From positions 1 through 10,328 of the forward strand of contig SVMQ01000054.1 of NCBI GenBank assembly GCA_015067375.1: a stretch of DNA of 10,328 nucleotides. Reading direction: 5' to 3'. Below, piece after piece: positions 1 through 10,180 of this stretch (the first letter of the stretch is position 1; every line of letters begins with the position of its first letter). Position numbers and translations under genes: made by a program. The notes below the pieces were generated by a model. It saw only the letters and a program-made list of their open reading frames with translations. It was not told the origin of the DNA and made no database searches. This DNA comes from Oscillospiraceae bacterium (GTDB lineage Bacteria > Bacillota > Clostridia > Oscillospirales > Ruminococcaceae).

Positions 1-480
1 TCTTATCGTTTTGTTGGAGTTATTCCAGATACGGGTCAGTTCTTCGCTTTCAAGCTTCTTTATCTCCAGAAGAACAGGTTCGGTTGCATCCGCAAGCGTT
101 CCGACAAGAAATTCTCTGGGTATAGACGGAATATCTCTGATTGCCTGCATTGCGCGTCCGATCATTCTGTATTCATCAGAATATTTCTGTATCGCAGGTG
201 CCTTTGAATGTGCAGATATCAGCACCTGCAACTTCAGCTGCATCGGTGAAAATCTCTCGATCAAAGGATTATCAGGGTCGGCATGGAACCCTGTCCTTGT
301 GCCTGTATCCTTTACCATCTCGATGTTATACACCCAGACGGTAAGCTGGAAATCCTCGGGCGACTGCGGCTCGCATATTCCGATATGCTCTTTTTTAGCG
401 ATAGGCTCAGGCACCATCTCGCTTCTGAGCATATTTACGATGGACTCTCCTACCTCATATATAGCGGTATAATCTGACAT
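1..480 (-). CDS. Pvc16/DUF4255-family CIS cap (tail terminator) protein, 3' end cut off by window
   Basis: The 5' part of a gene: 160 codons are visible and the reading frame runs open off the left edge. The protein starts MSDYTAIYEVGESIVNML. It has the usual layout of the DUF4255/Pvc16 N-terminal family: an opening helix, a strand region around residues 45-56 (QLTVWVYNIEM), a central helix with a P-x-Q-L-K-L-Q-V-L-I strand at about 79-89, and a closing helix ending in E-E-L-x-R-I-W at about 149-155. Family members are about 180-200 residues, so only a short C-terminal piece is missing. Known Pvc16/Afp16 proteins cap the distal end of the contractile tube and sheath and set or stabilise its length. 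Start ATG at 478-480 follows an AGGGAGAG Shine-Dalgarno sequence at 487-494. The upstream gene ends only 15 bases away, so co-translation is likely. No signal peptide is seen, as expected for a particle protein assembled in the cytoplasm. Confidence 0.85.
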   Translation of the reverse strand, partial: MSDYTAIYEVGESIVNMLRSEMVPEPIAKKEHIGICEPQSPEDFQLTVWVYNIEMVKDTGTRTGFHADPDNPLIERFSPMQLKLQVLISAHSKAPAIQKYSDEYRMIGRAMQAIRDIPSIPREFLVGTLADATEPVLLEIKKLESEELTRIWNNSNKTIR

Positions 481-495
481 TATATTCTCTCCCTG

Positions 496-1830
496 TCAGT
501 CGATGAACTCTCCGAACGGAGCAAAAACATCGACTTTATATGTACCAGCAGGTATGTTGTTTACATAAAATGTGATCTCTGCATAGTCGCACTCATCAAC
601 GTATTGTATTACGCTGCAGGCACCGCCTGTGCCACCGGTAGATATCATTCTATTATTATAGGTCATCGTCCAGCTGACGACATCTTTCTCCCTGACATAC
701 ACCCCGTATGGCAAAGCAGCAACGCTGTACACATTACCAGTCGCTGTCCTTGACATCACCCACAGACCGCTGCCCGACTGCTTATCGCTCACTGCAGACT
801 TGTATGCCTTCGCTCTGCCGTCGCTCAGCGAAAGTCCCTTTGTCAGCGCTCCGCCGCTTGCCTTATCAAGCTCAAGAAGCGACTTTGCATAGTCTGCTTT
901 TGCCTGCGACGCGGTCATATATGCCGCGGTCTTTTCGCCTTTAAGTGCAGCAAGCGTATCAGCGGTAACAGTGCCTAGCTTTAACTCTGCTTCGCTTTTT
1001 TTCAGTGCATCAGCTGCTGCTATGTACTCCCGCATTGCGCTGCCCAGATCATAATAACACTTGACTGCAGCGTTGTACTGTCCCGAGATATCAGCTATCT
1101 CGATCTCGTTAAGCTCGCTGCCCTCAGGCATACAGATGCTTGCTCCGCCGTATATTCCCGTAAGCTCCTCAGCCACCAGCTTTGTTGCATCTGTGATAAG
1201 ATATGCACTGCTGAAATCGAAGTCAGAAGTGAGTGTTTCTCCTGTTATCGCCTCTATTTCGGTCTTCAGCGCGCTTATCTCATACAAAAGCGCCTGTATC
1301 TCATAGTATTTGCTCTCGGTATCCTTCTTTGCCGCCTCAACATCCGTGAGCTGACATCCACCTACTTTAAACAACGCTGCACAGCTTTCATAACCGTTCT
1401 TGCAGGCTTTATAATCATCATAGAGCAGCTTCAGCTGCTTTAACAGCATATCATAATCAATGAGCATAGGCGCAAGCTCATACTCCAGTGCGTCTATCTC
1501 TGCCGAATACCCGTCAAACAGCGCCAGCCTTTCCATGTAGAGCGCGGCCAGCTGCTCCTGCAGGCTTGCCTGTTCTTCGCTGTCCGCCGACTCTTCTGCC
1601 GAGGATGCTGTGCTTGACGTTGTACGCGTATCACTGTTATCCGCGCTCTGCGCATGTATACTGCCGAGCAATGCATCGAACCGAGTGCTGATATCCTTTA
1701 TCGCGGGTGCGTGCTGCGACATCAGTGATACCGCGGCTTCGCTGTCGCAATAATTCGTATATGCTGCCGCGCCTATACCCGATAGTAAAAATACAGCTGC
1801 AGCGCCTGCCGCAAATATACGCCTTTTCAT
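496..1830 (-). CDS. Exported alpha-helical protein with two TolC/outer-membrane-efflux-like helical hairpins and a beta-rich C-terminal domain
   Basis: Protein of 444 residues. Residues 1-23 are a basic, then hydrophobic signal peptide or anchor (MKRRIFAAGAAAVFLLSG), with a possible signal peptidase I site after the AAA at 21-23 and no lipobox. A Ser/Thr/Glu-rich disordered stretch (about 60-88) is followed by long helices at about 89-200 and 245-330. Two 61-residue segments (140-200 and 269-329) align without gaps. Each has a helix, a turn of the form K-x-G-x-x-x-(T/A)-D-x-x-x-A near the middle, a second helix, and an ending on a Gly-x-x-Leu turn (TGETL, SGGAL). This is the internal duplication typical of TolC-type efflux proteins. 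Residues 355-444 look beta-rich and may form an Ig- or FnIII-like domain. No beta-barrel strands are visible, so a true outer-membrane pore is not supported. There are eight cysteines in all. The start follows AGGGGG at 1838-1843, 20 bases after the MORN gene. The role is unknown; context suggests an extracytoplasmic part of the CIS membrane module. Confidence 0.7.
   Translation of the reverse strand: MKRRIFAAGAAAVFLLSGIGAAAYTNYCDSEAAVSLMSQHAPAIKDISTRFDALLGSIHAQSADNSDTRTTSSTASSAEESADSEEQASLQEQLAALYMERLALFDGYSAEIDALEYELAPMLIDYDMLLKQLKLLYDDYKACKNGYESCAALFKVGGCQLTDVEAAKKDTESKYYEIQALLYEISALKTEIEAITGETLTSDFDFSSAYLITDATKLVAEELTGIYGGASICMPEGSELNEIEIADISGQYNAAVKCYYDLGSAMREYIAAADALKKSEAELKLGTVTADTLAALKGEKTAAYMTASQAKADYAKSLLELDKASGGALTKGLSLSDGRAKAYKSAVSDKQSGSGLWVMSRTATGNVYSVAALPYGVYVREKDVVSWTMTYNNRMISTGGTGGACSVIQYVDECDYAEITFYVNNIPAGTYKVDVFAPFGEFID
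844..1413 (-). repeat. Diverged internal duplication (protein level) in the TolC-like protein
   Basis: Codons 140-200 (1231-1413) and 269-329 (844-1026) encode two equally long helix-turn-helix segments. They align without gaps: Tyr at the start, a K-x-G turn at units 16-18, A-x-K at 27-29, and Gly...Leu at the end. The DNA copies have diverged, so this is an ancient duplication and not a recent tandem repeat. The spacing matches the two-hairpin plan of TolC-family proteins. Confidence 0.5.
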
Positions 1831-1850
1831 ATCAGCACCCCCTGTCTTAA

Positions 1851-3620
1851 TTATTCTTCATCCTCAGCGTCGTCTGCCGAAACAAAACCAAGGCTCTCAA
1901 AGTCCTTTATATCCAGTCCCACTTCTTCAAACAACGCCGCTATCTCCTCGAATGTAAGCTCTGTACCCGACATATCCACTGTGCCTGGTGCGTCGCCTGC
2001 ATTTATAGCACCATCCGCGGATTTAAGCTTCAGCTCTCCGCTGTTCTTATCTACCCAGTAGTACGAGGTCGTCGTTTTGTAGACCGCCGCATAGCACACA
2101 AGGTCCTGCGCGTTAACACCGAACTTCTTTTCAGCCCATGCGTCGATCTGCTTGTCGATCTTGCTGACGGATATTGCGGACGAAGCCGTGATATCATTCA
2201 CCGACTTTATCACAGAACTGCCTGCAAAAGGTCTGGTATAGACCATTGTTGCTGCAGCAGGCGTGGTTTCGGTCGCAAAGCTGAACCTGACAGCCATACC
2301 GAAATCATCATCCTCCATATAAAAGCAATCCGTGTCTATCCTCTGCTTTAGTGACGGTATCATCTCACCGAATACTGCGGAATCCTGTCCGATAAGGCGG
2401 CTGTAATCAAAATCGCCGTCGTCGAACATTCCCAGATATCTGAAGCTTCCTGTAACATTGGTGAGCGTACCCTCGCCGTCGGGAATGCTTTCATCAAAGC
2501 AGCCCTCATATTTCATTCCGTTGATATAGGTGCACACCGCCGTACCGCTTATCTCACCGTCGGTAAAGCTGCCTGTTATTATGCTTCCGTCGCTTCCGTA
2601 AAGCGTTCCGCTGCCGTTGTACAGACCTTTTTCAAACTCGCCTGAATACAGCTTTCCATCTTCGTTGTAAACAGTACCTGTGCCACTGTACTTGCCCATC
2701 TCAAAGCTTCCCGAATACAGCTTTACGCCCTCATCGGTGTACAGTATGCCATCACCATTATAAACTCCCGATGTGAACATACCGTTGTATCTTACCACAC
2801 CATCCTCGGTGTATTCCATAGCCATACCGTGAGGAAGTCCACCGCTGAAAGCTCCGCTGTAATGCACTGTGCCGTTGGAATAATACTGCTTTCCGTTACC
2901 CTCGGGGATGCCTTTTACGAAATCGCCTGAATAGCAGAGCTTTTCGTCCTCGCTTATCGAGCCGCTTCCCTCAAGCTTTCCGTTCACGAATGTTCCCGAA
3001 TATTCCTTGCCGTCCTCATCGGTCAACGAGCCTTCACCGTTGAAGTTGCCCTTTTCAAAGCTGCCTCTGTAACGCACAGAGCCGTCCTCATAATACAGGA
3101 TGCCCTGACCTGACAGATTACCTTCTTCAAAGCTTCCGTCATAACGCAGCCTGCCGTTTTCGTAATATGCGATGCCATCCTCAATAGGCGCACCGTCAGA
3201 AAGTCTGCCCTCAAACTGCAGATTCTCAAACTCCTCATCGAAGTACACTCTTACTCTGCCGTTATAATCCGACAGCGCTGCATCCTGAGTGTAAAAATCC
3301 TTGACCCAGAACCAGCTTGTAAGCAGCGGATGCAGGATAAATATGTACAGCAATGGTATCAGGATAAGCAGCACCAGGATCAGCATTACAAGCGATTTTG
3401 CAACGTAAATGCTGCCCCAGTCGAAGTAATCCTCCGCCTTTTCGGGCTTTGTCTTTAGTATCTTTGGCAGCTTCTTTACAACACCCGGCAGGGCTGTAGC
3501 TACCTTGCCTCCGCTGAAAAAGTGCGTCAGCTTATTATTAACTACCCTAAACGGGCGCAGCAACAGATTTTTAAGCACGCGCCCCATCATCTGTATGCTG
3601 CTGATTATCCTTTTTATCAT
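1851..3620 (-). CDS. Membrane-anchored MORN-repeat protein
   Basis: Protein of 589 residues. Residues 1-60 are strongly basic and amphipathic and should lie in the cytoplasm. One strong membrane segment spans about 73-98 (SLVMLILVLLILIPLLYIF). Residues 135-405 contain about 12 MORN-type units of 21-24 residues with the pattern Y-x-G-x-F-x-x-G-x-x-x-G-x-G-x-x-x-x-x-D-G; units 2-9 are the clearest. The remaining 410-589 region is acidic, has no motif I recognise, and ends in DDAEDEE. By the positive-inside rule the MORN domain faces outside the membrane. MORN repeats in general form elongated beta-hairpin rods that bind membranes or proteins. No SET, kinase or hydrolase domain is fused to them here. 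The start follows GAAGGG at 3631-3636 (10-base spacing), 46 bases after the cyclase-like gene. A scaffold or docking part of the CIS membrane module is the best inference. Biochemical function cannot be stated. Confidence 0.85.
   Translation of the reverse strand: MIKRIISSIQMMGRVLKNLLLRPFRVVNNKLTHFFSGGKVATALPGVVKKLPKILKTKPEKAEDYFDWGSIYVAKSLVMLILVLLILIPLLYIFILHPLLTSWFWVKDFYTQDAALSDYNGRVRVYFDEEFENLQFEGRLSDGAPIEDGIAYYENGRLRYDGSFEEGNLSGQGILYYEDGSVRYRGSFEKGNFNGEGSLTDEDGKEYSGTFVNGKLEGSGSISEDEKLCYSGDFVKGIPEGNGKQYYSNGTVHYSGAFSGGLPHGMAMEYTEDGVVRYNGMFTSGVYNGDGILYTDEGVKLYSGSFEMGKYSGTGTVYNEDGKLYSGEFEKGLYNGSGTLYGSDGSIITGSFTDGEISGTAVCTYINGMKYEGCFDESIPDGEGTLTNVTGSFRYLGMFDDGDFDYSRLIGQDSAVFGEMIPSLKQRIDTDCFYMEDDDFGMAVRFSFATETTPAAATMVYTRPFAGSSVIKSVNDITASSAISVSKIDKQIDAWAEKKFGVNAQDLVCYAAVYKTTTSYYWVDKNSGELKLKSADGAINAGDAPGTVDMSGTELTFEEIAALFEEVGLDIKDFESLGFVSADDAEDEE
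2406..3218 (-). repeat. MORN-repeat-encoding region, about 12 units
   Basis: These are roughly 70-base units encoding Y-x-G-x-F-x-x-G blocks. The best units start at residues about 158, 182, 206, 229, 252, 276, 300 and 324 of the 589-residue protein. The first and last two units are degenerate. Unit DNA sequences differ clearly from one another, so the array is old and held by selection on the protein and not recently expanded. Confidence 0.85.
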
Positions 3621-3666
3621 ATCGGTTATTCCCTTCCCGACCTGTTAATAGCCAATATACCACCTG

Positions 3667-6402
3667 TCAGCTGCCGAATTCATTGAATACGACATAAGTA
3701 AGCTGTGGCTTTTCGGAAGTACTGTTATATTCCGCGAGATACATATAGTTGCGCGATACTCCATCATCCGACGCATACTTCACTATATCCATGAACTGTG
3801 ACTTTGCGTGTACGAAGTCCTTCTTCTCAAACAGATTCACAGCCAGCTCAAACCTCATCATGTACTGCTCCTTGAGCTTGATAAGTGAATACGGATCGCT
3901 GTCAAACATATCATAAAGCTTGACTTCACCCAAATCCTCTGAGTTGTATCTGCCGATGCAACGATTTCTGTATTTTCCTTCGGGCAGCGATCTGAACACG
4001 CTTTCTGTGCAAATTATGTACAGTCCGCTGTCGCGGCAGAGCTTTTCGATCTCTTCTGCCTGGTTTATCGCACCTGCAACCGCTGTCGGCTCCATTCGTG
4101 ACTCATCACCGATAAAGCCGAGCATTACATTATCCTCGCTTATAACGACGCGCATATCCACACTGCGCTTGCCCATAGCCTTTCTCGCCTCGTTGTACGC
4201 GGAGATGGACTCACGCACACGGATAGCAGCTTGCAGCGCATCCTCGGCAGACTCAGGGAAGATAGCATAGAATCCGTTGTACAGGAAGTTATATGCAGTA
4301 CCACCGTTATTGCTGATAATAGGCACGATCTGCTCAAAAACAGAATTGATGCTTTCAAATATCTCTTCAGTTTCCATGCCCGCCAGATTCTGAGAAAACT
4401 CAAAATTCAGGTACATTACAGCCATCTTACGCTTCGCGTTAAGGGACTTGCTTACCCTCTCTATCTGTGTTTCGCCAAGATTTTTAAGGAAGCTGAGCGG
4501 CACGAAACGATAATAGGAGTTGTTCAGCTTTTCAAGGCTGGTCGTTTTTTCTACGATATGCACCGAAAGCGCTTTTACAGACTTGGAAAGATCCTCGACC
4601 TCATCGCCCGTGTTGATGGTGACTGCCGCATCATACTCGCCCGAAGCGATACGGTCTACCGACTTTTTCAGCTTTCTTACCGCGCCCGCGGTTATGTTCT
4701 CGATGATAACGAATATCGCCACAAGAACGATACCGCCGATAAGCAGGAATCTGTTGATGACAGCACTGATATCATCAACCGCCTCCGAAAGTCCGCTGAG
4801 TCTGAGGCCGACAACGATATAAGTCTTATTCGCAGTCATCGGGAGAGATATCTCTCTTATCAGATACAGCTTTTCACCATCAAGGCTCCTTCCGCTGATG
4901 AACAGTTCACGCTCAGTCATCTGATCCAGCTTTTCTGTCAGATCCATAAGATAGAAGAGCGAATCAGCAGGATAGCCCTTTGGATACATCTCGCCCGATG
5001 CTATGATATTGCTCCTGTTCTCAGAACGCTCAATAATATGGATCTGTGGCTTCTCGTTATCGCCCGCGAAATCATCCTCATCCTCCTGCGCGATGACCTC
5101 ACCATAGCTGCGCAGATAGCTTTCGTATTCCTCGTAGCTTGCCTGCACATTTCCAATCGAACCGCTCAAGCTGTCTTCAAAGCTGTTTGCTACGATCTGT
5201 GCTTCATGTCTGTAGTTTGATGTAACTATGTTTTCCACCTGCGGAATGATGATGAAATTCGACAGTGAGAACAACATTATCGATATCAGCATTATTATCA
5301 GCAGTGACTGACGAAGCAGGATGGACATATTCATCTTGAGGATACCACAATAGAAATCCCACGTCAATATCGTCAATACGATAATCAGCACCACTACCAC
5401 TGCCAGCACAAGCACGCTGTTGACAAGCGCACCTCTGTCTACGCTGTCTGTGTAGACACGGTACATAAGCGAGAAGCTGCCCGTATAAAGCTGCTCGCTC
5501 TCACTTCTGACAGTACCGAAGATATTGCCTGTTATTCCTACTGAAATGTCATCCATATCAGATATGGACAATCCGTCCTCAGCGTTTATAACTCGTGCAC
5601 CGCTTACAGTATACGATACGGAACGATCGCCCGACACCGTGTAGATATCTCCCGTAGCGGAATCCATTGCATAAAACTGATCGATACCATTCCAGAAGCG
5701 GTCAAATATTGCATCAGTATTCTTGAAAATGATGTGCGAGCCGTTTTCATCGTAAACCGTTATACCATCAGCAGTACCGACATAAAGCTCCTTTGCATCG
5801 GATGTATATGCGCCATATATCTGCTCATCGGTCAGGGAATACTCAGCTACCTTGGCAGCAAGCTCCGAATTGCTCTTGGGTGCGGAGAACACCTCCGCTT
5901 TCTTTCCGTCAACGAGCGCAAAAAAGATGTTTGTATCATTCTCACTGAACGATGAGATAACGTTTGAGCGACTGTTCATGTAACGTGATATCTTCTGATT
6001 GAATATGCGCTCTGCATAGCTGCCGTCCTCATGGAATGTATGTACCTCGACATTTTCCACGAACATGGTCTCCTTGTTGTAGCTATACACCGTCAGATAG
6101 ATATTCTTGTCGTGTTCGACATATATCTGACCGACATAAAAGCTATCTCCAAATGTTTCAGCATCAAGACTGCGCTCATACAGCCTTTTTCCGGAGGAGT
6201 CTATGCAGATCAGGGATCTCTCTTCGCCGTCATCACTGATGTAGTATATATTTCCTGCACGATCCATGGCATAAGCAGTATTGAGCGTTTCGTTTTCACC
6301 GCCAAAGCCCAGCCCGAAATTGGATGTGCTGAAGATCGCTGCCGCGCCCAACACAGTGTATGCAACTAAAATTATGATAAAGCTAATGATCTTTTTTACC
6401 AT
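3667..6402 (-). CDS. Polytopic HAMP receptor with degenerate class III adenylyl/guanylyl cyclase domain (pseudo-cyclase)
   Basis: Protein of 911 residues. TM1 is at about 5-25. An ectodomain at about 41-315 carries about six repeated blades of the type Y-A-M-D-x-x-G-x-I-Y (for example 44-53 and 244-254), NHL/PQQ-propeller-like. TM2 is at about 326-348 and TM3 at about 362-386. A second ectodomain (387-548, Cache-like in placement) precedes TM4 (551-570) and HAMP (571-620). The linker YRFVPLSFLKNLG (631-643) is the one that precedes many bacterial class III cyclases. The cyclase domain spans about 655-810. Both metal-binding aspartates appear replaced (N666 in MYLNFEF; N709 in FLYNGFYAIF), the substrate lysine is N705 and the transition-state arginine is E784. 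T773, N780 and the G-F-I-G-x-x-x-R-M segment (762-770) are kept. A TPR-like C-terminus (846-890) follows. It probably senses or relays a signal across the membrane without making cyclic nucleotide. Start follows GGAGG at 6411-6415. Confidence 0.85.
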   Translation of the reverse strand: MVKKIISFIIILVAYTVLGAAAIFSTSNFGLGFGGENETLNTAYAMDRAGNIYYISDDGEERSLICIDSSGKRLYERSLDAETFGDSFYVGQIYVEHDKNIYLTVYSYNKETMFVENVEVHTFHEDGSYAERIFNQKISRYMNSRSNVISSFSENDTNIFFALVDGKKAEVFSAPKSNSELAAKVAEYSLTDEQIYGAYTSDAKELYVGTADGITVYDENGSHIIFKNTDAIFDRFWNGIDQFYAMDSATGDIYTVSGDRSVSYTVSGARVINAEDGLSISDMDDISVGITGNIFGTVRSESEQLYTGSFSLMYRVYTDSVDRGALVNSVLVLAVVVVLIIVLTILTWDFYCGILKMNMSILLRQSLLIIMLISIMLFSLSNFIIIPQVENIVTSNYRHEAQIVANSFEDSLSGSIGNVQASYEEYESYLRSYGEVIAQEDEDDFAGDNEKPQIHIIERSENRSNIIASGEMYPKGYPADSLFYLMDLTEKLDQMTERELFISGRSLDGEKLYLIREISLPMTANKTYIVVGLRLSGLSEAVDDISAVINRFLLIGGIVLVAIFVIIENITAGAVRKLKKSVDRIASGEYDAAVTINTGDEVEDLSKSVKALSVHIVEKTTSLEKLNNSYYRFVPLSFLKNLGETQIERVSKSLNAKRKMAVMYLNFEFSQNLAGMETEEIFESINSVFEQIVPIISNNGGTAYNFLYNGFYAIFPESAEDALQAAIRVRESISAYNEARKAMGKRSVDMRVVISEDNVMLGFIGDESRMEPTAVAGAINQAEEIEKLCRDSGLYIICTESVFRSLPEGKYRNRCIGRYNSEDLGEVKLYDMFDSDPYSLIKLKEQYMMRFELAVNLFEKKDFVHAKSQFMDIVKYASDDGVSRNYMYLAEYNSTSEKPQLTYVVFNEFGS
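3958..4455 (-). other. Class III nucleotidyl cyclase homology domain with lost catalytic residues
   Basis: Codons about 650-815 of the 911-residue receptor. The fold-level landmarks are in order: first strand KMAVMYLNFEF, helix with INSVFEQIV, hairpin GGTAYNFLYNGFYAIF, helix with A-x-x-A-A-I-R-V-R, then the strand and loop GFIGDESRMEPTAVAGAIN. The two Asp metal ligands are Asn, the base-contacting Lys is Asn and the catalytic Arg is Glu. The fold looks kept while the chemistry looks lost. Confidence 0.75.
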
Positions 6403-6447
6403 CCGGAAATCCTCCGTTTCACTGAATATATTGAAAATGTGCTGCTA

Positions 6448-7185
6448 TCAACACATGATATCTCTTTTTCTTAGCTTCTTCTCCCTCATATATCGGAAAA
6501 GACTTGTAAAGAAGCTCTCCTTTGCATACAGCTTAAAGGTCTCCTCAGCGTTTTTGCTGACCTCACGCCAATCCGAATAAGCATCAACGCAGCTTTCGTA
6601 TTTGCCGCTGAGAAGCCTGATGATATACTCATCGATCTCAAGCGGAAGCATTTTGCCCTGAGGAAATATCATGCAAAGCAATTCGCCCAGCCATTTAGAA
6701 CGGAAGCCTTCTCTGAATTCTGCCTTGACCGGCATCATATAATTGATACCTATCCTCATAAGTCCCTTATCCACAACGACATTGCTCACATTAGTCACTC
6801 TGTGAGCAAGCCTGTCGTCAAGCAGATCCAGCTGCAACGACTCCAGCAGCAAGCTCTGTGCAAGCTTTTGCCGCTGCTCAAATGTAAGCGAGGAGTTTTT
6901 CGAGAAAAATTCCGTAAAAGACTCGCCCTCGTTATGATCGAAGACCACTGATACACTGCCGTTCGCCGTTATAAGCTTGCGAAAGCTGCTGCACTCCTGC
7001 AAACGCTCATTATATAACAAAGGAAGAAATGTCTTGATTGCTTCACGACTTTTGTAGGTGTTGATAAGGCATGACCTGTAGCCGCTGTACACCATTACGT
7101 CTATACAAAGACATGCCTCGTAGCTGTCGTCAGACTCAAGCACTTCTATGACTTTATATTTTCCGCTGTCAATTAACCCCTGCAT
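6448..7185 (-). CDS. Protein-kinase-like fold lacking catalytic residues (putative pseudokinase)
   Basis: Protein of 245 residues with no signal peptide or membrane segment, hence cytosolic. Its order of elements resembles a small protein kinase. YKVIEVLESDD (10-20) occupies the first-strand position. SCLIN (38-42) occupies the VAIK strand, with Asn in place of the ATP-binding Lys. A hinge follows at about 80-93, then an alpha-E-like helix at about 104-125. HRVTNVSNVVVD (128-139) aligns with the catalytic loop HRDLKPSNILLD: His, Arg and the metal-site Asn are kept, while catalytic Asp is V130 and Lys is N132. RIGINY (144-149) takes the DFG position without the Asp. The C-lobe is short and ends in a very basic tail (RYMREKKLRKRD, 231-242) that could touch membrane or acidic partners. 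Start follows CAGAGG at 7191-7196, 21 bases after the preceding gene. The next gene is 45 bases downstream. If the alignment is wrong, this is simply a CIS-linked protein of unknown fold. Confidence 0.55.
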   Translation of the reverse strand: MQGLIDSGKYKVIEVLESDDSYEACLCIDVMVYSGYRSCLINTYKSREAIKTFLPLLYNERLQECSSFRKLITANGSVSVVFDHNEGESFTEFFSKNSSLTFEQRQKLAQSLLLESLQLDLLDDRLAHRVTNVSNVVVDKGLMRIGINYMMPVKAEFREGFRSKWLGELLCMIFPQGKMLPLEIDEYIIRLLSGKYESCVDAYSDWREVSKNAEETFKLYAKESFFTSLFRYMREKKLRKRDIMC

Positions 7186-7206: not shown

Positions 7207-9048
7207 TTACTCCTCAACGATGACAAAAGCGGATGTGCGGCTGTCTTCATCGGCATTGCTGAATGCCACGATCTCATATGTACCGGGAGCGGAAGGCGCC
7301 TGATACAGTCCGTTTTCATCGATATTACCACCGTCAGTATCGTTAACAGACCAAGTTACGGTCTTGTTCTCGGTACCCTCTACCTCAGCCTTGAAACGGA
7401 TGCGCTCAAGCGGCTTGAGCTTCTGGATATCGGGAACTATCCTTACTACAACGTTATCCTTTGCGCGCATCTCTGCGGTATCTCTGGTAGGCTTGTAAGC
7501 AAACCAGCGCACTCTTACATTATGTCCCTCAACATAATCCAAAAGGCGCAGACCTACACGGAAAGTACCCTTATCGGGATTGAGCAGTGCGGCAGTTTCT
7601 ATTCTGGGTACCGCCTTGTTTTCGCCCTTTGTTGCAAAGACCTCACCGCTACCGAACAGCAACATACGCTGTCCTGCATCGCTGTACTCCACAGAAAGAG
7701 AGATGCTGACATCTCCGATACCGAGATTATGAGGTATCTCCTGAGAAGTGAATCTTGCATTCACTCTTATCGCACCTGAAATAGGAATATCCACAACGCC
7801 CGAGGATGTTGCGTAATCATAAGCCTCTGACGAGGGTATGCCAAATCTGAAGCTGAGCTTCTTGTTCTTCTGGTTGTAGGAAGCGTTTACCTGAGGCTTC
7901 TGCCAATACTCAAGCGTCTCCACCTCTGTGGAGATACCGCCCTTCAGGAAATTGCTATCCGTTTTTGCAGCGCTCTGAACTATAGGTGCGGAGCTTTCGG
8001 CAATAGCAGCAGATGCTGTGCCTGCATCCTCAGAACGAAGCCCCGTCCTCTGCGCAAAGGGGAGCGGAGTGATATTTCTGATGATAAATCCCGTACCGAT
8101 GTTAAGGCAGTCTATCTTAGCAAGGTAGATAGGTGTATTGTCGCCGCTTATATGCTTTTCAAGCGTGCTCATGCGAGTGTTCTTCATGCTGTCAAAGCTC
8201 TCGGCGTCAGCACAGATGTATACCTCTGCAGCATTAACGGTCATCTTATCCGAGATATCGCCCATCTTTACAGATATCTCACCCTTGCTCTTGCTGATGG
8301 GTGCGATCATATCAGAAACACCTACTGCCCTGAGCGTGAAATCAACGGTGAACACGTCTTTCTTTACGCTGCTGTCCTCTGTGAACTTCAGCTCGATATC
8401 GCTGGAGCTTCCGCTGCGGAAATATTCTGACTGGAAAGTGTATGTAAAGGATACAGGCTGGCTGTCGATGCCCTTGAGAACGATAAATCTGATGTCCATC
8501 TCATCGCCTGACATTGCAAGCTTCGGCACCACCATAACAATACGCAGTCCATGCGCATTATACACTACCGAAACCGTGTTCATGCCTGCAGCGCCATAGA
8601 TATCTTCAAGCGTGGGATCGTCAGTGCTGAGATACAGTCTGTAGCCTTCTTCGATCTTATTGAACTGCTCGCTGTCGTGATCGGATGCGCCGATATTGTT
8701 GACAGGCTCGCGGTCAAACTGTGAATATTTAAGGCAAAGGTAAGCCTGCTCGGACTTTTCAAGGCTGTCGTAGCCATCCACCATCTGCAGCTTTCTGATT
8801 ATCGGAGTAGGAACAACTATCTCTCTTCCGAGGTAATCAAGCGCCATGCCTGTTTCGATAGAAAAGGATGTGTCATCATTCTGATAAACACCCAGACCAC
8901 ACACTACGCCTGCGCCGAAAAGAACGCGGTTAAGGAGTCTGCGCTTGTTATTGTAATACCGCTGCTCTATCTCAAAATCACGGGCAGTCAGCATTTTTCC
9001 GTAAAAGTATCTATTTCTTTCAAACGGGAAAAAATTATTATTGTTCAT
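7207..9048 (-). CDS. CIS baseplate-associated protein with YFYGK...DFE.EQRY N-terminus and C-terminal Ig-like domain
   Basis: Protein of 613 residues with no signal peptide. The N-terminus (about 6-55: FFPFERNRYFYGKMLTARDF, then EIEQRY, NKRRLLNR, GAGVVCGLGV) matches a block I associate with uncharacterised proteins beside eCIS baseplate genes. It is followed by a G-x-A-L-D-x-x-G-R-E-I-V-V segment (67-79) also seen in that group. The middle (about 160-335 and 370-525) is beta-rich, with an Ala/Ser linker at about 338-368. Residues 534-612 form a bacterial Ig-like domain: V-x-P at the start, TVTWSVN at 563-569, GGNIDENGLYQAPS at 573-586, then GTYEIVAFSN. It probably decorates the baseplate or mediates contact with a surface or the membrane module. 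The ATG at 9046-9048 is chosen because AGGAGG lies 8 bases upstream, inside the previous gene. The two genes overlap by 11 bases, pointing to coupled translation. Confidence 0.75.
   Translation of the reverse strand: MNNNNFFPFERNRYFYGKMLTARDFEIEQRYYNNKRRLLNRVLFGAGVVCGLGVYQNDDTSFSIETGMALDYLGREIVVPTPIIRKLQMVDGYDSLEKSEQAYLCLKYSQFDREPVNNIGASDHDSEQFNKIEEGYRLYLSTDDPTLEDIYGAAGMNTVSVVYNAHGLRIVMVVPKLAMSGDEMDIRFIVLKGIDSQPVSFTYTFQSEYFRSGSSSDIELKFTEDSSVKKDVFTVDFTLRAVGVSDMIAPISKSKGEISVKMGDISDKMTVNAAEVYICADAESFDSMKNTRMSTLEKHISGDNTPIYLAKIDCLNIGTGFIIRNITPLPFAQRTGLRSEDAGTASAAIAESSAPIVQSAAKTDSNFLKGGISTEVETLEYWQKPQVNASYNQKNKKLSFRFGIPSSEAYDYATSSGVVDIPISGAIRVNARFTSQEIPHNLGIGDVSISLSVEYSDAGQRMLLFGSGEVFATKGENKAVPRIETAALLNPDKGTFRVGLRLLDYVEGHNVRVRWFAYKPTRDTAEMRAKDNVVVRIVPDIQKLKPLERIRFKAEVEGTENKTVTWSVNDTDGGNIDENGLYQAPSAPGTYEIVAFSNADEDSRTSAFVIVEE
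7213..7449 (-). other. Bacterial Ig-like (Big/BACON-type) domain
   Basis: Codons 534-612 of the 613-residue protein. The segment shows the V-x-V...P opening strand, RFKAEVEGT, VTWSVN, the G-x-I-D-x-N-G-L-Y-x-A-P loop and GTYEIVAFS, in the order and spacing usual for Ig-like surface domains. Such domains are often found on phage tails and secreted adhesins, where they extend or bind. Confidence 0.75.
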
Positions 9049-10180
9049 CTTTGCTTCCTCCTAAAATGATCTCATTGGAAATACGCGTTCCGACATCTGT
9101 ATTCGCATAGCTGTAACCGCTAAGCACTGAATTTACGCCAAGGTAGGTATGCTTTTCAAGTATGGTATTATTTCGTGTTATCACGACCTCAGGCTCGGTA
9201 TAAGCAGGGATCCTGCGTTTTAGCTTATCCATAAAGAGATTTGCCTCATGAGTATCAGCAAAAGTCTTTTCAGGAAGCAGCACAAAGAATTTGTAAGGAT
9301 TATCACCGAACAATCTGTGATATACCTCCTTGTCCCTGCCCTCGTGTACCAGCTTATCTACACTGTAATACTCAATTATATTCGGTGTGACGCCGTATTC
9401 ATCCTCTATCCAGCTTATCAGACCGCGCTTAACGCCGATAAAACGATATTCATCCGCGGTATGACTTATCCTCTCACGCAGCCTGTCCTCGGAAACGTAT
9501 GCAACGTCCTCTATGCACAGCCAGCTGCTCAGATATCTCAAAAGGTCGCCTTGTGCAATGCGATAGTCAAGGCTCTGTGAGGATCTTTCGATTGCGCTGT
9601 CCATATCGAAGAATATACCGTCAAATATGGAAAGAAAGCGTGTCAGAAAGCCGTTCTCCCCGTCCTCCTCACGATATACCGAGGGAAGATAATCCACCAT
9701 CTGCTCGCCCTTTATCTGCAGCTTCAGCTTATTCACGCTCAGCTCACGGCGTTCAAGGATGATGAACTCAAGCTTGATCCATATATATCGTCCATGCAGA
9801 TCTATAGGTCCGTCAAAGCAGTTGCTGAAAAGCGGCTTGAACAGATCATCCACCGCCTGCAAGCGTGCTGACGCATCCACCGAGCTGTCTTTGAGAAAGC
9901 TGTCAAGCTCAGCCGTCCTGCCGTTGATAGAAACCGCTGTGTTATCGGATGCGTAAGCGCTTACCTGCATTACGATATTGTCGTCGAGCTGCGCATCTAT
10001 CTGCAGATTTCGCCAGCAGAAGTTATGCTCCGTAGAATCAACAGATCCTGTTATCATCACGCACGAACCATTCTCAAGCGTCGGTACGATACTGTTGCCC
10101 TTTACGCAAAGCCCCTGCAGCAGACAGCGCTGCCACTCGCGTTCGCGGTTGAGCGTGATAAACAAACGATTTCTGTTCAT
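9038..10180 (-). CDS. Phage tail protein I / TIGR02242-like CIS baseplate wedge protein
   Basis: Protein of 380 residues. Residues about 163-270 carry the tail-protein domain typical of CIS and phage baseplates: Y-L-P-S-V-Y-R-E-E-D (164-173), FLTRFLSIFDGIFFDMDSAI (178-197), LLRYLSSWLCIED (213-225), then R-E-R-I-S-H-T-A-D-E-Y-R-F-I-G-V-K-R-G-L (235-254) and the YGVTPNIIEYY strand (262-272). The N-terminal 160 residues, with several Trp and Cys and mostly predicted strands, resemble the extra beta domain of larger eCIS members. The C-terminal part (about 295-335: FFVLLPEK...RRIPAYTEPEVVI) is also typical of the family. It is expected to form part of the wedge joining the central spike hub to the sheath, comparable to Pvc12/Afp12 or P2 gpI. 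Start ATG at 10178-10180 follows AAAGG at 10190-10194, 26 bases after the upstream stop. Confidence 0.85.
   Translation of the reverse strand: MNRNRLFITLNREREWQRCLLQGLCVKGNSIVPTLENGSCVMITGSVDSTEHNFCWRNLQIDAQLDDNIVMQVSAYASDNTAVSINGRTAELDSFLKDSSVDASARLQAVDDLFKPLFSNCFDGPIDLHGRYIWIKLEFIILERRELSVNKLKLQIKGEQMVDYLPSVYREEDGENGFLTRFLSIFDGIFFDMDSAIERSSQSLDYRIAQGDLLRYLSSWLCIEDVAYVSEDRLRERISHTADEYRFIGVKRGLISWIEDEYGVTPNIIEYYSVDKLVHEGRDKEVYHRLFGDNPYKFFVLLPEKTFADTHEANLFMDKLKRRIPAYTEPEVVITRNNTILEKHTYLGVNSVLSGYSYANTDVGTRISNEIILGGSKDEQ
9057..9062 (-). promoter_or_regulatory. Consensus Shine-Dalgarno AGGAGG inside the upstream gene
   Basis: On the minus strand AGGAGG lies 8 bases before the ATG at 9046-9048. 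It sits within the last codons of the tail-protein-I gene, which stops at 9038. This fixes the start of the 613-residue protein and supports coupled translation of the two baseplate genes. Confidence 0.85.

What the first reader, a model, noticed from the sequence alone, without database searches (positions are those of the whole stretch)
496..7185. A putative membrane signalling and docking module embedded in a CIS operon
Between baseplate genes (9038-10180, 7207-9048) and the Pvc16 cap gene (1-480) lie four genes that are not standard CIS structural parts: a kinase-like cytosolic protein, a four-TM receptor with HAMP and cyclase-like domain, a TM-anchored MORN protein and an exported TolC-like protein. 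All share strand, gaps of at most 46 bases and good ribosome binding sites. Their topologies cover cytosol, membrane and outside. This suggests a particle that is anchored to, fired from, or gated at its own cell envelope, in place of a freely released one. Domain content is seen in the sequence; the joint function is inference.
Basis: partly seen in the sequence, partly recalled or inferred. Interest (0 to 1): 0.85.

Follow-up and report, generated by a model that had tools for sequence, protein, structure and literature searches.

The report
Membrane module of clostridial injection machines
Four neighbouring genes in a gut bacterium's contractile injection operon look like a membrane-spanning docking and trigger unit that recurs beside the baseplate genes of a whole branch of clostridial injection machines, which suggests that these machines work from the cell's own envelope instead of being shed.

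Summary
Between Cis12/Cis13 baseplate genes and a Pvc16 cap gene lie four same-strand genes: a kinase-fold protein (KIN), a four-TM HAMP/cyclase-like receptor (RECEP), a one-TM MORN protein and an exported OEP/TolC-like protein. Of 58 related CIS loci with at least 8.5 kb after Cis13, 57 carry KIN, 57 RECEP, 58 MORN, 56 all three. With an independent marker (Pvc16_N), 12 of 24 CIS loci carry at least two of the three genes, 8 none, 4 could not be judged. In a Cis11 tree the module rows form one clade (SH-aLRT 99). KIN and RECEP look like pseudo-enzymes: kinase catalytic Asp absent in 77 of 77, first cyclase metal Asp in 70 of 70; of seven RECEP relatives outside CIS, five keep both metal Asp. 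This argues for structural coupling and against second-messenger signalling. Four module-less CIS have fibre-size proteins instead, with S74 chaperones in the three scanned; four others have neither. Best reading: an envelope docking and firing-control module, working like Streptomyces CisA or the haloarchaeal T6SS anchor but built differently. Attachment and triggering are inferred, not shown.

The parts
1..480 (-). Pvc16_N sheath/tube terminator (cap) gene, cut by the contig end
   Evidence: PF14065 58.7 bits
496..1830 (-). Exported OEP/TolC-like protein with a signal-peptide-like N-terminus and a C-terminal domain of its own (slot between MORN and Pvc16)
   Evidence: hydrophobic N-terminus; homologues L103 and L165 hit PF02321 OEP above cut-off; alignment A7; the window protein itself has no OEP hit
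1851..3620 (-). MORN-repeat protein: basic N-terminus, TM at about residues 67-90, repeats predicted outside by the positive-inside rule (read by eye)
   Evidence: PF02493 86.3 bits; TM scan; MORN profile found in 58 of 58 loci with enough flank
3667..6402 (-). Receptor: TM1, all-beta ectodomain (about 40-316), TM2, TM3, alpha/beta sensor (about 424-535), TM4, HAMP, helix, class III pseudo-cyclase (655-832), helical C-terminus
   Evidence: AF2 model pLDDT 83.7; folds; profiles; catalytic residues lost
6448..7185 (-). Pseudokinase-fold protein (KIN); no TM here, a C-terminal TM and short outer tail in other clades
7207..9048 (-). Cis13-like baseplate protein
   Evidence: CIS13_fam 88.5 bits, under the equivalog cut-off
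9038..10180 (-). Cis12-like baseplate protein
   Evidence: TIGR02242 63.6 bits, cut-off 51.85; CIS12_fam 73.4, under its cut-off

Best explanation
The four genes encode a cell-envelope docking and firing-control module of a clostridial CIS. The assembled particle sits baseplate-down at the inner face of the producer's cytoplasmic membrane. The pseudokinase KIN and the pseudo-cyclase end of RECEP form the cytosolic face that meets Cis12/Cis13 (in other clades KIN is itself tethered by a TM). The outer beta domain and second sensor domain of RECEP read an outside cue or contact and pass it through TM4 and HAMP as a mechanical change that releases the baseplate. MORN and the exported OEP-like protein build the outer part and guide the tube through the cell wall. 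Shown: gene content, folds, predicted topology, loss of catalytic residues, near-universal linkage in the sampled loci and single-clade distribution. Inferred: contact with the baseplate, anchoring, the trigger, the wall conduit.
For: KIN/RECEP/MORN in 56 of 58 loci with enough flank, usually right after Cis13 (median Cis13-KIN gap 29 bases over the 75 loci that passed a strand and distance filter). Independent marker Pvc16_N: 12 module-bearing, 8 module-less, 4 undetermined of 24 loci over two samples, and the module rows are one clade in a Cis11 tree (SH-aLRT 99). KIN and RECEP lack catalytic residues, whereas five of seven RECEP relatives outside CIS keep both cyclase metal Asp, which points to repurposing as scaffold. 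KIN has a TM in 15 of 76, and three KIN-like proteins scanned from outside CIS carry LysM (two) or PKD (one) domains beyond a TM. In a second CIS type (G037/G026; partial contigs of the window's own genome match it) RECEP sits between a Cis7-like gene and gp25 inside the baseplate set. Precedents: CisA, a membrane protein encoded just downstream of baseplate genes and needed for Streptomyces CIS contraction (PMC12237407, passages); the haloarchaeal CIS binds the membrane and a clade-specific putative 6-TM anchor goes with the T6SS mode, with Cis11 closest to Bacillota (PMC11566945, passages).
Against: No interaction, localisation or firing data. Four module-less loci (G709, G521, G434, G642) show no fibre-size protein at Cis13 either, so the module is not simply a replacement for fibres. 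KIN was not found in G483 and G124, G037/G026 or L158, and RECEP not in L163, so parts can be missing. A regulatory or assembly role would give the same synteny. The 80 loci are the best 80 of 527 by Cis13 similarity, which favours close kin.
Confidence: 0.6

Rival explanations
1. A sensory module that controls when the CIS is made or assembled: RECEP senses the outside and KIN passes a signal to expression or assembly factors, with no physical docking.
For: Receptor architecture with HAMP. In the second CIS type a response regulator and a SpoIIE/HATPase sensor follow a few genes after Cis13. Geller et al. report LuxR-type (GerE) regulators beside 25.8% of eCIS loci, some with a histidine kinase (PMC8213781, passages).
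Against: Kinase and cyclase residues lost; no DNA-binding or response-regulator domain above cut-off among the window's proteins; MORN and OEP-like exported proteins have no place in a pure regulator.
Confidence: 0.17
2. A release portal: the module opens a path through membrane and wall so that particles leave without lysis, and the particles act as free eCIS.
For: Exported OEP-like and further exported proteins in the slot; an envelope module is needed in either case.
Against: A particle is far wider than an OEP tunnel (general knowledge); nothing in the proteins suggests a gate of that size.
Confidence: 0.1
3. Protection of the producer: the proteins hold or block particles so that they do not fire into the producer's own membrane.
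For: Pseudo-enzymes as binding scaffolds; linkage to the baseplate genes.
Against: A large outer sensor and exported wall proteins are not needed for inhibition.
Confidence: 0.08
4. Unrelated membrane genes caught between CIS genes by chance.
For: The window alone cannot exclude it.
Against: 56 of 58 loci across several families, single clade, RECEP among baseplate genes in another CIS type.
Confidence: 0.01

Closest known systems
CisA of the Streptomyces coelicolor CIS (type IId)
   Same: Membrane protein encoded just downstream of baseplate genes in a Gram-positive CIS without clear fibre genes; needed for contraction (PMC12237407, passages read)
   Different: CisA is one bitopic protein with an unstructured cytosolic N-terminus and a substrate-binding-like outer domain; here there are at least four proteins with pseudokinase, receptor, MORN and OEP-like make-up. 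Sequence homology to CisA was not tested.
Haloarchaeal CIS with T6SS mode and Hbor_38620
   Same: CIS at the producer's own membrane; a clade-specific membrane protein goes with that mode; Cis11 closest to Bacillota (PMC11566945, passages read)
   Different: The putative anchor is a single 6-TM protein with a cytoplasmic domain of about 150 residues, encoded upstream of the core cluster
Type VI secretion system membrane complex (TssJLM, recalled)
   Same: Would work alike: cell-attached contractile machine with a dedicated trans-envelope complex
   Different: No TssJ/L/M-type Pfam domain among the seven window proteins
Rv3910 intracellular pseudokinase and bacterial Ser/Thr kinases
   Different: No PASTA or other Pfam domain in KIN; no catalytic Asp; sits in CIS operons
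EssB/YukC of type VIIb secretion (recalled)
   Same: Topology of the TM-bearing KIN forms: cytosolic pseudokinase, one TM, outer tail
   Different: No Pfam YukC hit at E up to 5 for nine KIN proteins, nor for the window KIN at E up to 1
Receptor adenylate cyclases with HAMP (for example G156, 939 aa)
   Same: 4 TM, HAMP, class III cyclase fold
   Different: That protein keeps the metal and transition-state residues and no CIS gene was seen in its 20 kb; the CIS members have lost them

Membership tests
Contractile injection system (eCIS-type) | Sheath, tube, spike, gp25, baseplate J and cap genes in one operon | tested here: met
   Window: Cis12, Cis13, Pvc16_N. Whole operon in relative G042 with the same gene order: AAA, sheath, two gp19 tubes, CIS_tube, GpV, gp25, Baseplate_J, DUF4280 above cut-off; hub (GPD) and PAAR below cut-off
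Type VI secretion system | TssJ/TssL/TssM membrane complex | tested here: not met
   No such domain in the seven window proteins; the rest of the genome was not searched for it
CisA-type membrane adaptor | Sequence homology to CisA | not tested
   CisA sequence was not fetched; resemblance is by genomic position and membrane location only
CisA-type membrane adaptor | Required for contraction | not testable with these tools
   Needs a mutant and cryo-ET
Protein kinase superfamily | Kinase fold | tested here: met
Protein kinase superfamily | Catalytic HRD Asp and beta3 Lys | tested here: not met
   0 of 77 KIN sequences have Asp at the aligned HRD position; no Lys at the four beta3 columns examined (positions from the alignment to PknB)
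EssB/YukC | YukC Pfam profile or fold | tested here: inconclusive
   No YukC hit; EssB not among the rows listed by the fold searches, which does not exclude it
Class III adenylate/guanylate cyclase | Cyclase fold | tested here: met
Class III adenylate/guanylate cyclase | Two metal Asp, base-specifying Lys | tested here: not met
   First Asp in 0 of 70, Lys in 0 of 70, second Asp in 26 of 70 (one of 71 rows gapped); the window has Asn at all three
HAMP domain | Pfam PF00672 cut-off | tested here: inconclusive
   24.6 bits against 25; the family profile also matches solved HAMP proteins
MORN repeat protein | PF02493 above cut-off | tested here: met
   86.3 bits, 5 stretches
Outer membrane efflux protein (OEP/TolC) | PF02321 above cut-off | tested here: not met
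   Window protein: no hit. Of seven homologues or slot proteins scanned, L180, L103, L165, G026, L181 (22.1 against 22) and L182 pass it, L107 does not

The most novel reading that the evidence does not exclude
A branch of Bacillota carries a Gram-positive, cell-anchored contractile weapon: a T6SS-like machine that arose from an eCIS by adding a trans-envelope complex built from pseudo-enzymes, in which a former receptor cyclase and a former receptor kinase serve as a mechanical contact-sensing trigger, with MORN and OEP-like proteins forming a conduit through a single-membrane cell wall.
Probability: 0.42. Interest if true: 0.9.

Novelty: new variant of a known kind. Interest (0 to 1): 0.74.

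Why it matters
For most CIS found in genomes the mode of action is not known, and in Gram-positives the question whether they are shed, fire inside, or fire from the envelope is, to my knowledge, open outside Streptomyces. A conserved multi-gene membrane module next to the baseplate genes gives a genetic marker for a possible envelope mode and four targets to delete in cultured gut anaerobes. Pseudo-receptor-cyclases as mechanical triggers would also be an unusual use of that fold.

Tried and rejected
Rejected: second-messenger signalling by RECEP or phosphorylation by KIN as the main idea, because catalytic residues are missing. Not supported: KIN as a YukC/EssB family member by sequence; EssB was not among the rows of the fold searches, which does not exclude it. 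Rejected: a clean swap of fibres for the module; G709, G521, G434 (Cis13 of about 610-630 aa) and G642 (723 aa, no Pfam hit) show neither. At first some relatives seemed to lack RECEP (G034, G001, G024, G033, G008); in G034 two paralogues were found with a broader profile, so in G034 the absence was a detection limit; the other four were not re-searched with it, though G001, G024 and G008 have 800-860 aa proteins at that place. An early list of ORFs hid Cis13 and KIN in G034 and Cis13 in G021 behind spurious opposite-strand ORFs; re-read. The class-wide genome search with the KIN alignment missed KIN in G297, G185, G256 and G318; a profile search of the fetched loci found it. The class-wide RECEP search matched 223 of 245 genomes, mostly in the HAMP region, so only strong or neighbouring matches were used. 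RECEP-like proteins with strong scores lie in 20 kb stretches without a CIS gene in G295, G156, G183, G197, G266, G142 and G104: the architecture is not exclusive to CIS. Of these seven, G266 (L187) and G104 (L189) do not keep both metal Asp, and G197 and G142 have Lys in place of the Arg. The fold search of RECEP was filled by its cyclase domain; the beta ectodomain and second sensor were hardly tested, and a propeller is suggested only by the strand pattern of the model and a weak profile match to a two-component sensor (E 0.004). Promoter scans were near the shuffled mean; terminator-like sites were 17 against 7.7 expected, scattered inside genes and not used. Paper searches showed no description of the module in the held open-access library; subscription papers and preprints were not searchable, so prior description elsewhere is possible. 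PMC8213781 was seen in passages; PMC12210884 was searched for six terms with no hit.

Full report
1. What is in the window. The window is a complete 10,328-base contig of a draft genome (73.8% complete, 313 contigs). Seven genes on the minus strand fill it: Cis12, Cis13, KIN, RECEP, MORN, OEP-like, Pvc16. Gaps from Cis13 to Pvc16 are 15 to 46 bases and starts have purine-rich upstream stretches.

2. The rest of the operon. Relatives G021, G057 and G042 keep the order Cis12-Cis13-KIN-RECEP-MORN-OEP-like-Pvc16; G028 shows it up to its contig end; G004 has Cis12-Cis13 on one contig and RECEP-MORN-OEP-like-Pvc16 on another, with KIN not seen. The G042 contig shows a whole CIS: AAA, sheath, two gp19-type tubes, CIS_tube, a hub-like protein (GPD below cut-off), GpV spike, gp25, a Cis11-like protein (named by place and size), Baseplate_J, then the module, then a DUF4280/PAAR-like protein, a TM protein, a GNAT enzyme and an ABC_sub_bind protein that looks like a lipoprotein by eye.

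3. Is the module tied to CIS? A scan of genome contigs with a Cis13 alignment gave 527 relatives, of which the best 80 were kept. They include Anaerotruncus colihominis DSM 17241, Oscillibacter valericigenes, Flavonifractor, Agathobaculum, Lachnospiraceae, Desulfosporosinus, Heliorestis, Herbivorax and Marinisporobacter. Of the 80, 58 hold at least 8.5 kb after Cis13: KIN in 57, RECEP in 57, MORN in 58, Pvc16 in 56, the window's OEP-like family in 7; all three core genes in 56, on the Cis13 strand in 54 of those. By position the order is KIN-RECEP-MORN(-OEP)-Pvc16 in 48 of 58 and KIN-MORN-Pvc16-RECEP in 6; four loci have other or partial orders. The 22 loci with less flank were left out of this count. 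Selection by Cis13 similarity favours kin, so I also used an independent marker.

4. Independent marker. Pvc16_N was sought in 245 genomes of the class (11 loci in 10 genomes) and 398 of the phylum (15 loci in 15 genomes, two of them also in the class sample): 24 loci in all. Twelve have at least two of KIN, RECEP and MORN in the fetched stretch (G000, G297, G256, G185, G318, G124 first locus, G695, G420, G680, G674, G541, G483; nine of them have all three), eight have none (G232, G337, G296, G124 second locus, G642, G709, G521, G434), and four cannot be judged because the contig ends or the structural genes are out of reach (G294, G503, G634, G639). In a Cis11 tree of 35 rows, rooted by me on the fibre-type loci, the 26 module-bearing rows form one clade with SH-aLRT 99; G709, G521 and G434 lie next to it, G642 and the other module-less rows further out (quick tree, no bootstrap; two long branches flagged as meeting).

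5. What the module-less CIS have. G232, G337 and G296 carry proteins of 873 to 1,958 aa at the Cis13 place, most beginning with a Cis13-like domain; G124's second locus has proteins of 964 and 1,809 aa there. Of six such proteins scanned, five end in a Peptidase_S74 chaperone as in tail fibres (G296 one of one; G232 three of three and G124 one of two); G337 was not scanned. Module-bearing loci have Cis13 of roughly 520 to 625 aa. But G709, G521 and G434 have Cis13 of about 610 to 630 aa and G642 one of 723 aa without a Pfam hit, and none has the module, so fibre and module are not strict alternatives.

8. MORN and OEP-like. MORN has a basic N-terminus, a TM and repeats predicted outside. The OEP-like gene of the window has a signal-peptide-like start. 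Homologues in Desulfosporosinus (L103, L165) and proteins in the same slot in G185, G256, G318 and G026 pass the Pfam OEP cut-off. A second exported protein follows in several loci, with a Cu_amine_oxidN1 domain above cut-off in G026 and below it in G256. The slot between MORN and Pvc16 thus holds exported proteins in some loci, not in all.

9. A second arrangement. Contigs C118 and C71 of the window's genome match a second CIS type seen in G037/G026. There RECEP lies between a Cis7-like gene and gp25; MORN, OEP and Pvc16 lie together on the other side; no KIN was found in the 40 kb; and a gene with an APH phosphotransferase domain (50 bits, cut-off 23.2) follows Cis13. That RECEP is embedded among baseplate genes in a different order strengthens its link to the particle.

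10. Mechanism and what is inferred. The parts span cytosol, membrane and outside, sit by the baseplate genes, and two are built from folds of enzymes that lack their catalytic residues. The simplest joint role is docking of the baseplate at the producer's membrane and release of contraction on an outside cue. Contact with Cis12/Cis13, anchoring, trigger and wall conduit are inference. Precedents that such a role exists: CisA (PMC12237407, passages including part of the abstract) and the haloarchaeal T6SS (PMC11566945, passages). CisA's outer domain is described there as like substrate-binding domains; whether the ABC_sub_bind gene after the module is related was not tested.

11. Verdict. Observation confirmed; interpretation partly supported; new variant of a known kind; interest 0.74.

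Noticed in passing
G042 L063:8276-11278; ABC_sub_bind-like or TM-protein hits also in G674, G483 and G634: Downstream of Pvc16 and the PAAR-like gene lie a TM protein, a GNAT enzyme and an ABC_sub_bind protein, a possible extension of the membrane module beyond the window.
   Followed up: partly
G000 contigs C118 and C71 (L082, L083); fuller in G037 (L070-L071) and G026 (L072-L073): A second, different CIS in the window's own genome type, with RECEP between Cis7-like and gp25 and an APH-domain gene after Cis13, followed by MatE, a response regulator and a SpoIIE/HATPase sensor.
   Followed up: partly
L190-L195 (G110, G114, G147, G119, G294, G152): Six KIN-like domains outside CIS loci, each with one TM; of three scanned, two carry LysM and one PKD, and the kinase-like part has no Pfam hit.
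   Followed up: partly
G034 L080:4363-9386: Two RECEP paralogues side by side in one CIS locus, both with four TM, possibly a heterodimer.
   Followed up: no
L155 and L170, between Cis13 and RECEP: KIN lies on the opposite strand to its neighbours in Marinisporobacter and Heliorestis.
   Followed up: no
L171: A contig labelled Bacteroidales carries a clostridial-type CIS with the module: transfer or binning error.
   Followed up: no
80 loci, between RECEP and MORN: Many loci have an extra small one-TM protein (about 90-145 aa) between RECEP and MORN.
   Followed up: no
G042 L062:4178-8650: A 1,490 aa protein with long internal repeats at the tape-measure position.
   Followed up: no
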